DNA of 64,000 bases from Thermotoga neapolitana DSM 4359 (GTDB taxonomy: Bacteria > Thermotogota > Thermotogae > Thermotogales > Thermotogaceae). The position numbers and the translations under genes are program-made. The stretch is from the NCBI RefSeq assembly GCF_000018945.1, contig NC_011978.1:776729-840728 (forward strand), given 5' to 3'. This document shows positions 39,326 through 43,146 of this stretch, piece after piece (the stretch's first letter is position 1; every line of letters starts with the position of its first letter). Under the pieces are notes generated by a model that saw only the letters and a list, made by a program, of their open reading frames with translations, was not told the origin of the DNA and ran no database searches.

Positions 39326-40852
39326 ATGAGAAGGTATCTGGTACTGTTTCTTGTTCTTCTGCTCAGTGTGTTTCTCCTTGGTGTAAGACTCACCATTCTT
39401 CATGTAAACGACACCCACGGACATGCCTGGACGTTCGACGAATATCAAAATCCAGGAATAGGGGGACTCGCCGCTATTGCAACGATAGTAGAAGAGGTAA
39501 AAAGAGAAGTCGAAGAACAGGGAGGATACGTGATCTTCCTTCACGCAGGTGATTTGAACACAGGGGTTCCTGAATCCGACCTTCAGGATGCGATACCGGA
39601 CATCGTGGGCTACAACATGATAGGACTTTCTGCCATGGCTGTGGGAAACCATGAATTCGACAATCCGAGGGACGTTCTTCTCAAGCAGATGAAGTTCGCT
39701 GATTTTCCGTTTCTTTCCGCAAACATCTTAAAGGAAAACGGAGAGCCGTTCTTCACACCGTACATACTCAAAGATTTTGGCAAATTAAAAGTCGCCATAA
39801 TCGGTTTCACTACAGAGGAAACAACGATCCTTGAACCTCTTTATCTTGAGGATCTGAAGTTTGAAAACGCTCTGAAGGTGGCACAGAAGATAGCACCTGA
39901 ACTGAAAAACCAGGCGGATGTTGTGATCGCCCTTGCCCATCTTGACTGGGGAGAACCAAAAAAGGAAAATATCACCACAACACACCAGCTGGCAAAAGTC
40001 GATGGAATAGACGTAGTTGTAGCAGGCCACAGTCATGTTCTCGGCTCTGAAGTGGTGGATGAAAAGATAATAGTTTCTGCGGGTGAATATGGGAAATACG
40101 TGGGAAGGCTTGATCTGGATATAGAGGATGGAAAGATCGTAGCATGGCACTGGCAGGCCATCCCCGTTAATTTGAAGGCGTACAGAGACGGAAAGTATGA
40201 ATATGTTGGAAAACCCTATCTTGAGAACAGATACGTCGCGAAAGCGCTCGAATACTTCAGAAAAGTCGGCAACGAAAAACTCGATACTGTGATTGGAGAA
40301 ACGAAGATCTTCCTTGACGGTGAAAGGGAACACGTGAGATCGAGAAATACAAATCTCACCAATCTCATAACAGATGCTATGAGATGGAAAGTGAAAGCAG
40401 ACATAGCGCTCACAAACGGTGAAGGAATAAGAGCCTCTATAAAACCTGGAAAGATCACTGTGAGGGACATCCTCACAGTTCTCCCGTTTGGGAACACTCT
40501 TTATGTTCTGGAACTCACCGGTGAACAAATCATGAAAGTCCTTGAATACTCCGCCACAATACCTGAAGGAAAGGGAGCGTTCCTCCAGGTTTCTGGGCTT
40601 ACATGGAAGAGCAAAGATGGAAAAGTCGTGGAAGTTCTGGTGAATGGAGAACCCCTGGATCCGAAAAAAACATACAGGGTCGTGACGAACAACTACATGG
40701 CAGGAGGAGGAGATGGCTATACAATGCTCAAAGAATGGGGAGGCTACGACACAGGCTTCCTCATGTCAGACGCTGTCATAGAATACATACAAAACGTTTT
40801 AAACGGTGTGATAGAAGAGTACGATAACTCACAGAGGTACGTCAGAGAATGA
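39326..40852 (+). CDS. Secreted 5'-nucleotidase/UDP-sugar hydrolase (UshA family)
   Basis: Exported metallophosphatase that frees nucleosides and phosphate from nucleotides, 508 residues. The signal sequence is MRRYLVLFLVLLLSVFLLG. The metal centre is visible in ILHVNDTHGH, LHAGDLNTG, VGNHEFDNP and VVAGHSHV. The C-terminal 5'-nucleotidase domain has NTNLTNLITDAMRWK, NGEGIRASIKPGKITVRDILTVLPFGNTL and NYMAGGGDGYTML for substrate binding. It has its own terminator and borders the CRISPR-repeat intergenic region. Confidence 0.94.
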   Translation: MRRYLVLFLVLLLSVFLLGVRLTILHVNDTHGHAWTFDEYQNPGIGGLAAIATIVEEVKREVEEQGGYVIFLHAGDLNTGVPESDLQDAIPDIVGYNMIGLSAMAVGNHEFDNPRDVLLKQMKFADFPFLSANILKENGEPFFTPYILKDFGKLKVAIIGFTTEETTILEPLYLEDLKFENALKVAQKIAPELKNQADVVIALAHLDWGEPKKENITTTHQLAKVDGIDVVVAGHSHVLGSEVVDEKIIVSAGEYGKYVGRLDLDIEDGKIVAWHWQAIPVNLKAYRDGKYEYVGKPYLENRYVAKALEYFRKVGNEKLDTVIGETKIFLDGEREHVRSRNTNLTNLITDAMRWKVKADIALTNGEGIRASIKPGKITVRDILTVLPFGNTLYVLELTGEQIMKVLEYSATIPEGKGAFLQVSGLTWKSKDGKVVEVLVNGEPLDPKKTYRVVTNNYMAGGGDGYTMLKEWGGYDTGFLMSDAVIEYIQNVLNGVIEEYDNSQRYVRE

Positions 40853-40879: not shown

Positions 40880-41297
40880 TTTCTCATTCCTGAAGACTTA
40901 GTTTGAAAATTATAAGTGTACAACAACATAATTTTATTTACTAAACCAGGGTAAGTTCCATTTATTCACAAAGTAGGTGGTGATTGTAACTGGCACAGGA
41001 AGAAGGATGTGGAGTATGCAACTGTCGGTAACAAGAAAAATTCATGCGGGTTTGAGAGAAATGATGTATGCAAGAAAAATGGAATAGTGAGTGAGAAAGT
41101 GAAAAAAGATCTGAGAATATGCCTTCATCTGCGATCATGTATCTGGCATAAATAAAGAAACCACACACTTAGTTTCTAACCTTTTAAGGAGTACCTTTTT
41201 AAACAAACTTGTGAAAACAGGAACTAGACGATTTTCCCATAAAACACCTCAAAATGGCCTGACCTAGGCTCCCTTATTCCATTTTTCCAGACAGTAC

Positions 41298-41325
41298 TTG
41301 ACTGACCCTTTCTGTGTGTTAGAAT
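41298..41325 (+). promoter_or_regulatory. Distal promoter in the candidate CRISPR leader
   Basis: TTGACT, 16 bases, TAGAAT, on the same strand as the repeat, about 90 bases upstream of it. Confidence 0.5.
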
Positions 41326-41365
41326 CACCTGTGATGAAACACCTTCTGTATGTCCCCTTGTACTC

Positions 41366-41395
41366 TTGCTTTCTGAAAAGTCCTTGTGGTATAAT
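41366..41395 (+). promoter_or_regulatory. Leader promoter abutting the CRISPR repeat
   Basis: TTGCTT, 18 bases, TATAAT. Transcription would start near 41402, about a dozen bases before the repeat, as in active CRISPR leaders. Confidence 0.65.
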
Positions 41396-41413
41396 TTCTT
41401 TGAAATCCAATGG

Positions 41414-41443
41414 GTTTCAATACTTCCTTAGAGGTATGGAAAC
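41414..41443 (+). CRISPR. Single complete CRISPR repeat with no array
   Basis: A 30-nt unit beginning GTTTCAATACTTCC and ending GAGGTATGGAAAC, which I recognise as the standard repeat of Thermotoga CRISPR loci. Its ends pair (GTTTC/GAAAC, ATAC/GTAT) and it ends GAAAC, so the crRNA strand is plus, in line with the promoter upstream. The next 60 bases contain only short look-alikes of its 3' end (AAGTATAGAAAC at 41445-41456, AGATACGGAAAC at 41481-41492), no second full repeat and no spacer of normal length. No cas genes lie in the window. Either a collapsed array or a leader-repeat unit that never gained spacers. Confidence 0.88.
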
Positions 41444-41501
41444 TAAGTATAGAAACGAGGTACAGACTCAAAGAAAAACAAGATACGGAAACAAAAAACA
41501 A

Positions 41502-41525
41502 AAAGCGGGGAAAGATCCCCGCTTT
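41502..41525. terminator. Bidirectional terminator between the CRISPR repeat and pyrBI
   Basis: Perfect 9-bp stem (AAAGCGGGG / CCCCGCTTT) with a 6-nt loop, 18 bases after the pyrBI stop codon. On the minus strand it is followed by TTGTTTTTTG, ending the eleven-gene operon; on the plus strand it would end a transcript from the CRISPR leader. Confidence 0.88.
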
Positions 41526-41543
41526 GATTGCTTTTTAAAAAGA

Positions 41544-43127
41544 TCAAATGCTCCATATCTCTTCGAACGAGTGGGGAGTTTCACAGTACTCACAGACAAA
41601 TCGGCCGTTTTCATCTCTCACAAATGAGGGAGACACGTTCTCACCGTGTGCAGGATTTGTGATGCAGTTTTCGTTTTTGCACCGCAGTTCTTCAAAACCG
41701 TATATGGTGGGTGGCAGTTTTATTCTGTACTTTTCCACAACGGAACTGTTCTTTATGATGTTCACAGTCGTGTTCGGAGAGATCGCTGCGAGTTTCTTTA
41801 TCTCCTTTTTGGAAAGATATCGGTCGGGCAGACTGATGTATCCTTTGAAACTACCATCACTCGACCTGAAGATACCATCCGCACTGTCCACATCGTAGAG
41901 TTTCAAAATCTTCCTTATTTTGACGATCGTGGCGTAGATCTCCTCAGGTGTTTTTCCTTTGGCGATGTGATCTATCACGGTTCCATTTTCTATTGGTTTT
42001 ATTCCCCTCTTTCCGTCTTTTTGAACACCCTTTGTACCGTGCACGATGGGAGCCGGTATGATGAAATCTTCCTCCTTCTCCGGTGCTTTTTTCGACGTAT
42101 CGAAGGGAGCCTCAATAGCCCCACCGAACATGGAAAGAAGCACTATCCTCACCCAGTATCCGTTTCTTGCCTGCGTTTCCCAGCCGTTCAAAGGAAGAGA
42201 GTCGAGAAAGTTCGGTATGGTCGGATACAGTTTGTGTCGTGGAAGGGGATGGTAGAACTTCACACCTTCTGGTAGTTTCTCAAGAAATTCTTTTCTGAAC
42301 GTGACAGCCTCCCGCAAAAGATGAACCTTTTCAAGGATGTCTTCACCCATTCGTTCGAGTTGAAGCCGTGTGAAATACCACATCTTTGCCACATCTTTCT
42401 GGTTCAAATACTCTTCGATCGAGGAAAAGGTTCTGACTTCAAAGCCGTTCTTTTTCATTCTCTCGATGTAGTGCTCCGGCATCATGAGTTCTTCAGGAGC
42501 CACAAGATCCACCTTCACGTTTTTGAAGATCTTCAAACCGTTCACCTTCGAGTGGACTGTTCTTCCATGGAGCAGATCCCCAACGAGTGCCAGGTGTATG
42601 TAAGAGTTGTCGAAGTTGTTCTGTTCTAAAAACGTGTACTCGTCCAGAAGTTCCTGTGTAGGATGCTCGTGTTTTCCATCTCCTGCGTTTATGAAGGACG
42701 GTATCTCTATGCCGTTTCTGAGAGCAAACTCGGAGATCCTTCTTTCAAGGAGTCTGCAGACTCCCTCGAGTCTTGTCCTCACCACGAATATGGAATAATC
42801 ACTGTATCCTGTGAGCATGGCGAAGGTATCGGTGTAACTTTCCTGTTTGTTGAAGGAGGAGTGTTCAGAATCGAAGATGTTCACCTTCACGTTCGGCCCG
42901 GCATGAAACTTAGCGGCGTTTATGAAAGACTCCTTTGTTCTGGTACTTGGCTCGACGAAAACGATGTATATACCAACGTTTCTCTTTCTTATCCTGAAAT
43001 CTGACACATCCTCTCCGCTGTACCATCGCTTTTTCAGTTCCCTGGTTTTCTCGTAGAGAAACATCTGCTCTTCAACGCTCAGGTCCTCTATGACGGCGAG
43101 TGTTCTTCCAAGAAAGTCTCTCTTCAA
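41544..43127 (-). CDS. pyrBI: Aspartate carbamoyltransferase, fused catalytic and regulatory chains
   Basis: First committed step of pyrimidine synthesis: carbamoyl phosphate plus aspartate to carbamoyl aspartate. PyrB and PyrI are one chain of 527 residues, a fusion I recall for T. maritima. I place the start at TTG 43127 (MKRDFLGRTLAVIED), after GGGGAGG. Catalytic part: VEPSTRTKESF (about 55), DGKHEHPTQELLDEY, PLPRHK. Regulatory part (from about 375): KRGIKPIENGTVIDHIAKG, with the nucleotide-binding domain, then zinc cysteines CKNENC and CEYC. The fusion implies a fixed 1:1 ratio and allosteric control. It is the last gene of an eleven-gene run and has a terminator-like hairpin directly before it. 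Confidence 0.96.
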   Translation of the reverse strand: MKRDFLGRTLAVIEDLSVEEQMFLYEKTRELKKRWYSGEDVSDFRIRKRNVGIYIVFVEPSTRTKESFINAAKFHAGPNVKVNIFDSEHSSFNKQESYTDTFAMLTGYSDYSIFVVRTRLEGVCRLLERRISEFALRNGIEIPSFINAGDGKHEHPTQELLDEYTFLEQNNFDNSYIHLALVGDLLHGRTVHSKVNGLKIFKNVKVDLVAPEELMMPEHYIERMKKNGFEVRTFSSIEEYLNQKDVAKMWYFTRLQLERMGEDILEKVHLLREAVTFRKEFLEKLPEGVKFYHPLPRHKLYPTIPNFLDSLPLNGWETQARNGYWVRIVLLSMFGGAIEAPFDTSKKAPEKEEDFIIPAPIVHGTKGVQKDGKRGIKPIENGTVIDHIAKGKTPEEIYATIVKIRKILKLYDVDSADGIFRSSDGSFKGYISLPDRYLSKKEIKKLAAISPNTTVNIIKNSSVVEKYRIKLPPTIYGFEELRCKNENCITNPAHGENVSPSFVRDENGRFVCEYCETPHSFEEIWSI

Positions 43128-43146
43128 AATCAACACCTCCCCTTGA

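What the first reader, a model, noticed from the sequence alone, without database searches (positions are those of the whole stretch)
41298..41525. Lone CRISPR repeat with its own promoter and terminator: a minimal or collapsed locus
One perfect copy of the 30-nt Thermotoga CRISPR repeat (41414-41443) lies 18 bases after a TATAAT box (TTGCTT-N18-TATAAT), in crRNA orientation, and 58 bases before a strong terminator. A second upstream promoter (41298-41325) points the same way. There is no second full repeat, spacer or cas gene. This leader-repeat-terminator layout is either an array that lost its spacers by repeat recombination or a naive locus ready to acquire. It could produce a short repeat-only RNA. 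The solitary-repeat state next to an intact leader is rarely described.
Basis: partly seen in the sequence, partly recalled or inferred. Interest (0 to 1): 0.78.

Follow-up and report, generated by a model that had tools for sequence, protein, structure and literature searches.

The report
Collapsed CRISPR array with one repeat
This is what remains of a CRISPR immune-memory array in a heat-loving Thermotoga after all its stored spacers were lost: a leader, one perfect repeat, a scrap of the old end repeat and a terminator. It is a clean natural example of a known but seldom documented event, in a strain that has also lost most of the matching immune machinery.

Summary
Window 41414-41443 is a perfect, solitary copy of the genome's 30-nt CRISPR repeat, and about 300 bp upstream is a true leader, homologous to the leaders of all seven other 30-nt arrays in the genome (75-92% identity).

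The 'collapsed array' reading is supported and the 'naive locus' reading is not. The same trailer and gene (pyrBI) follow arrays of 2-30 repeats in five of six other Thermotoga genomes. The trailer keeps a 13-nt stub of a degenerate terminal repeat. Published coordinates of strain RQ7 (same species) put a 5-spacer array at the equivalent position. Most likely, recombination between identical repeats deleted every spacer.

Two points go beyond the finding. First, the locus is a chimeric junction: its leader-side and trailer-side flanks belong to two different, oppositely oriented arrays in relatives, so array-array recombination shaped it before the collapse. Second, the 30-nt arrays are largely orphaned here. 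The csm operon is deleted after truncated csm1, no RAMP genes remain, and the cas1 present belongs to another lineage with its own 29-nt array. Genomes in that state have the fewest 30-nt repeats.

Collapse to one repeat and CRISPR-linked rearrangement in Thermotoga are both known kinds. Transcription and spacer uptake here are untested.

The parts
41102..41413 (+). CRISPR leader (homology to the other seven leaders; homology to the 961-kb leader reaches further, to about 41054). Carries a ~50-bp deletion near 41270, shared only with the 961-kb leader
   Evidence: genus search and leader alignment
41298..41325 (+). distal promoter-like element TTGACT-N16-TAGAAT; its sequence is largely conserved in leaders across the genus
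41366..41395 (+). proximal promoter TTGCTT-N18-TATAAT, conserved in the other leaders with N17; one inserted base here
41414..41443 (+). the single full CRISPR repeat, perfect copy of the 30-nt family
41444..41456 (+). 13-nt stub of the degenerate terminal repeat (TAAGTATAGAAAC)
   Evidence: aligned to the G004 C5 terminal repeat and trailer
41457..41501 (+). trailer, homologous to the trailer of the G004 array; holds a second eroded half-repeat at about 41482-41492
41502..41525 (+). terminator-like hairpin, 10 pairs; listed by the scan on both strands
39326..40852 (+). leader-side neighbour, 5'-nucleotidase family; in relatives it flanks the leader of a different array
41544..43136 (-). trailer-side neighbour, fused aspartate carbamoyltransferase (PyrBI); flanks the trailer of an array in five of six other Thermotoga genomes

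Best explanation
A once longer CRISPR array that lost all its spacers. Its last full repeat was a perfect copy, because the degenerate terminal repeat had already shrunk to a 13-nt stub, so the first and last full repeats were identical. Recombination or replication slippage between them deleted everything in between and left leader-repeat-stub-trailer-terminator. The site was formed earlier by recombination between two different, oppositely oriented arrays, which joined the leader side of one to the trailer side of the other. The collapse went uncorrected because in this strain the 30-nt arrays are largely orphans: their csm effector genes are deleted and the cas1 present belongs to another lineage. 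The locus probably still makes a short RNA and may still be able to accept a spacer. Shown: leader homology, shared trailers, stub, chimeric flanks, csm deletion, cas1 lineage difference. Inferred: the recombination mechanism, the order of events, relaxed selection, and any residual activity.
For: The leader is homologous to all seven other leaders of the genome (alignment). The pyrBI-side trailer follows arrays of 4, 13, 23, about 30 and 2 repeats in G001, G002, G003, G004 and G006. The G004 trailer aligns to this one from inside its degenerate terminal repeat onward. Strain RQ7 locus #6 (5 spacers, 1,090,312-1,090,681) lies 215 bp from the position predicted by interpolating the offsets of the other shared arrays. 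Chimera: the leader-side flank groups with G002:940034 and G003C6:16873, the trailer-side flank with G001:1631790 and G002:1171790. Recombination at arrays: the 271-kb and 311-kb arrays have reciprocally exchanged flanks relative to G004, and two G004 arrays, one of them at the pyrBI trailer, share four consecutive spacers. Orphaning: no RAMP gene in G000; csm1 474 aa against 721 in G004, with the following csm genes missing between collinear flanks; Cas1 only 41-47% identical to that of G001/G003/G004/G005, against 87-91% to G002/G006; RAMP matches and 30-nt repeat counts correlate over seven genomes (rho 0.95, permutation P 0.002, not corrected for phylogeny). Literature precedent: single-repeat collapse in Legionella and the prediction that an unpolymorphic trailer repeat allows collapse.
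Against: The RQ7 match rests on published coordinates, not on sequence. No shared spacer links the site to its relatives, so deletion is not shown directly, and growth of the RQ7 array from one repeat is not strictly excluded. A similar stub directly follows a perfect repeat at two other loci as well (961 kb, 1152 kb), so it shows an ancestral terminal repeat but not when the spacers were lost. The correlation with cas loss rests on seven related genomes, one of them a 150-contig draft (G006).
Confidence: 0.86

Rival explanations
1. Naive locus: a leader plus one repeat seeded here by recombination or conversion from another array and never filled, kept as a ready acceptor.
For: A solitary leader-adjacent repeat suffices for naive adaptation in other systems; cas4, cas1 and cas2 reading frames are open in the genome; the leader is 92% identical to the 961-kb leader and shares its deletion, so sequence does move between loci.
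Against: The stub and second eroded half-repeat, and the homologous trailer with about 30 repeats in G004, show that an array stood here; RQ7 has a 5-spacer array at the equivalent position.
Confidence: 0.07
2. The collapse happened in the same crossover that joined the two arrays: the first repeat of one array recombined with the last repeat of the other.
For: The flanks come from two different arrays, and one repeat is exactly what such a crossover would leave.
Against: RQ7 appears to carry 5 spacers at the same junction, and another rearranged junction (U3-D16 at 739 kb) is shared with G004, which points to an older rearrangement and a later collapse. G004's own leader-side adjacency is unresolved because its contig starts inside the leader.
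Confidence: 0.15
3. A functional repeat-only RNA locus: the transcript is cut by Cas6 and the trailer acts as a pseudo-spacer or decoy.
For: Promoter, repeat hairpin and terminator are in line; two Cas6 genes are present; T. maritima CRISPR cassettes are transcribed.
Against: The single-repeat state appears specific to this strain, and the proximal promoter has a unique extra base between its hexamers. The leader carries the most private substitutions of the eight, though only 6 of 307 positions. No effector that uses 30-nt crRNAs is clearly intact.
Confidence: 0.05
4. Assembly or annotation artefact.
For: Arrays are repetitive.
Against: Spacers are unique, so short arrays do not normally collapse in assembly; the seven other short arrays of the same genome, with 2-6 spacers each, are resolved in the same contig.
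Confidence: 0.02

Closest known systems
Collapsed CRISPR arrays in Legionella pneumophila (types I-C and I-F; PMC7056967 and Rao et al. 2017 cited there)
   Same: all spacers lost, leader plus a single repeat left, explained by recombination between first and last repeats; collapsed locus considered refillable
   Different: Here the retained repeat is perfect, with a 13-nt stub of the terminal repeat after it, whereas in Legionella the product resembles the variant last repeat; this one is a natural state in a sequenced strain, at a chimeric array junction, with cognate cas genes decayed
CRISPR-linked chromosomal rearrangement in Thermotoga (DeBoy et al. 2006, Mongodin et al. 2005, as cited in PMC5637354)
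   Same: arrays act as recombination sites; flanks exchanged between arrays
   Different: the earlier papers could not be read here; whether they mention this junction is unknown
Solitary repeat units (SRUs) of prokaryotic viruses (reviewed in PMC8616872)
   Same: one CRISPR repeat without an array
   Different: SRUs are carried by viruses and resemble host repeats; this one sits behind a full leader at a chromosomal array site shared within the genus
Orphan I-F arrays in E. coli lacking I-F cas genes (reviewed in PMC8616872)
   Same: small array outlives its cas genes
   Different: those keep anti-cas spacers; here no spacer remains

Membership tests
CRISPR array (canonical) | at least two repeats separated by a spacer | tested here: not met
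   single full repeat, no spacer
CRISPR array (canonical) | leader homologous to other leaders of the same repeat family | tested here: met
Collapsed CRISPR array | single repeat directly behind the leader | tested here: met
Collapsed CRISPR array | array of more repeats at the orthologous site in relatives | tested here: met
   pyrBI-side trailer follows arrays in G001, G002, G003, G004, G006; RQ7 by coordinates only
Collapsed CRISPR array | terminal repeat or trailer retained | tested here: met
   13-nt stub and homologous trailer
Collapsed CRISPR array | lost spacers identified in a direct ancestor or sister strain | not testable with these tools
   RQ7 sequence is not held; this genome's arrays share no spacer with the relatives held
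Naive acceptor locus | gains a spacer when Cas1-Cas2 is active | not testable with these tools
   needs an experiment
Solitary repeat unit of viruses | lies in a virus or provirus, without leader | tested here: not met
   leader present; flanked by genes conserved at CRISPR sites across the genus

The most novel reading that the evidence does not exclude
Replacement of the adaptation module together with loss of the csm effector orphaned a whole family of eight dispersed arrays, which are shrinking in parallel and now act mainly as recombination sites; this locus would be the first to reach the single-repeat end point while keeping a leader that a returning cas module could refill.
Probability: 0.3. 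Interest if true: 0.55.

Novelty: new member of a known kind. Interest (0 to 1): 0.38.

Why it matters
Array collapse to one repeat has been seen in the laboratory and argued to be held back by terminal-repeat variation. Here is a natural case in which the last full repeat is identical to the others and the variant terminal repeat has been reduced to a stub, which fits that argument. The genus also offers a natural comparison of eight dispersed arrays of one repeat family with and without their cognate cas modules, which makes the question of how arrays decay after losing their machinery directly testable.

Tried and rejected
A recent crossover relic near the other half of the junction: the 697-kb site, where the displaced trailer-side flank now lies, holds no repeat with fewer than 13 mismatches and no leader match. 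Shared spacers between this genome's arrays and the other Thermotoga arrays fetched: none. An array at pyrBI outside the closest Thermotoga: none in G005 or in six pyrBI loci of more distant relatives. Leader similarity between the 29-nt and 30-nt families: none by blastn. DeBoy et al. 2006 is not held. The first Cas1 comparison had picked a wrong reading frame in three genomes and was replaced. A protein reading of ORF 41298-41627 was discarded: it runs through the leader, the repeat and the terminator.

Full report
What is there. The window lies at C1:776729-840728 of a 1,884,562-base genome. By length (from memory) this is Thermotoga neapolitana DSM 4359. That fits the published description of the sister strain RQ7: the paper puts the cas6-csm1 cassette 2285 bp upstream of array #3, and here csm1 ends 2285 bp before the 704,816 array. 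The repeat at 41414-41443 is exact and unique in the window. The genome has 36 copies of this 30-nt repeat within 3 mismatches, in seven arrays plus this lone copy. RQ7's authors report 8 loci for DSM 4359; that equals the seven multi-repeat arrays plus the 29-nt array at 713 kb, so the lone copy was evidently not counted.

The leader is real. A genus search with 41150-41560 matches the leaders of all seven other arrays (75-92% identity). The alignment runs through both promoter-like elements to the repeat. The closest leader is that of the 961-kb array, and only these two share a deletion of about 50 bp. The lone leader has a one-base insertion between the proximal promoter hexamers (18 nt instead of 17) and 6 private substitutions in 307 aligned positions, the most of the eight but only slightly. 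It is therefore not visibly decayed.

The array was longer. In G001 (T. maritima by size, from memory), G002 (T. petrophila by size, from memory), G003, G004 and G006, the pyrBI-side trailer follows arrays of 4, 13, 23, about 30 and 2 full repeats. No array stands there in G005 or in the more distant pyrBI loci. In G004, the nearest relative, the last repeat is degenerate (GTTTTAACACTTCCTTTGATGTATAAAAAC) and the shared trailer begins inside it. The lone locus keeps 13 nt of that end (TAAGTATAGAAAC) directly behind the perfect repeat. The 961-kb and 1152-kb arrays of this genome end the same way, with a perfect repeat plus a similar 13-nt stub. An array whose last full repeat equals its first is the one expected to collapse; a review states this argument, and Legionella provides experimental cases. 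Within the species, RQ7 locus #6 has 5 spacers at 1,090,312-1,090,681. Interpolating the coordinate offsets of six other arrays predicts 1,090,097 for the lone site. The RQ7 sequence itself was not available, so this is an inference from coordinates.

The site is a chimeric junction. Grouping all flanks by blastn, the leader-side flank of the lone repeat (5'-nucleotidase gene) belongs with arrays G002:940034 and G003C6:16873, whose trailer side is a different family. In G001 the 5'-nucleotidase gene likewise ends 227 bp before the end of the record, just upstream of the array at 412. The trailer-side flank (pyrBI) belongs with G001:1631790 and G002:1171790, whose leader side is again different. 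In G002 the two arrays are in opposite orientation, about 230 kb apart, so one inversion between them would produce exactly this pairing. The same genome shows a clear reciprocal case at 271 kb and 311 kb: both flank pairs are exchanged relative to G004 and G002. In G004 two arrays, one of them at the pyrBI trailer, share four consecutive spacers. RQ7's authors credit CRISPRs with large-scale recombination in Thermotoga, citing earlier papers not held here. The rearrangement probably predates the collapse: the U3-D16 junction (739 kb) is shared with G004, and RQ7 appears to hold spacers at the lone site.

Why it was not rescued. The 30-nt family looks orphaned in this genome. The csm operon is cut after a truncated csm1 (474 aa against 721 in G004), and the following csm genes are missing between flanks collinear with G004. 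No RAMP gene is found anywhere in the genome. The cas1 present sits in a type I-B (Cst-type) module beside its own 29-nt array and is 41-47% identical to the Cas1 of G001, G003, G004 and G005; in G004 that Cas1 sits in a Csh-type I-B module. The leader of the 29-nt array shows no similarity to this leader. The Cst-module cas3 is split by a frameshift. Over seven genomes, RAMP matches and 30-nt repeat counts go together: 0/36, 0/10, 3/65, 4/99, 6/107, 6/202, 6/197 (rho 0.95, permutation P 0.002). This is seven related genomes without phylogenetic correction, and G006 is a draft in 150 contigs, so it is suggestive only. Whether the present Cas1-Cas2 can use this leader is unknown.

How it most likely works. 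Best supported: a collapsed array with an intact leader, probably still transcribed into a short repeat RNA and possibly able to take a spacer, but without an evident intact effector. Shown: leader homology, trailer homology, stub, chimeric flanks, cas decay. Inferred: recombination between identical repeats as the deletion mechanism, the order of events and any residual activity.

Against known kinds. Collapse to a single repeat and CRISPR-mediated rearrangement in Thermotoga are both described. It is therefore a new member of a known kind, with an instructive setting. It is not a canonical array, because the two-repeat criterion is not met, and not a viral solitary repeat unit.

Noticed in passing
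L098:7108-10198 (G000 C1:701107-704197): csm1 is truncated and the following csm genes of G004 are absent, with collinear sequence resuming just after; looks like a deletion of several kb relative to G004
   Followed up: yes
L098:15207-17547 (G000 C1:709206-711546): cas3 of the Cst-type I-B module is split into two frames by a frameshift inside the helicase core; the G002 counterpart is intact at 765 aa
   Followed up: partly
G000 C1:271825-272186 and 311394-311756: two oppositely oriented arrays with reciprocally exchanged flanks relative to G004 and G002: a 39-kb inversion between arrays
   Followed up: partly
L054 (G004 C5) and L055 (G004 C4): two arrays share four consecutive spacers (numbers 7-10 in each) and identical aligned leader sequence, a sign of array-to-array recombination
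   Followed up: no
G000 C1:818142 and 961163 leaders: only these two leaders share a ~50-bp deletion and are 92% identical, suggesting conversion between leaders
   Followed up: no
G000 C1:272187-272247: the 271-kb array ends in a repeat with an internal 5-nt deletion (GTTTCAATACTTGAGGTATGGAAAC) after a 36-nt spacer
   Followed up: no
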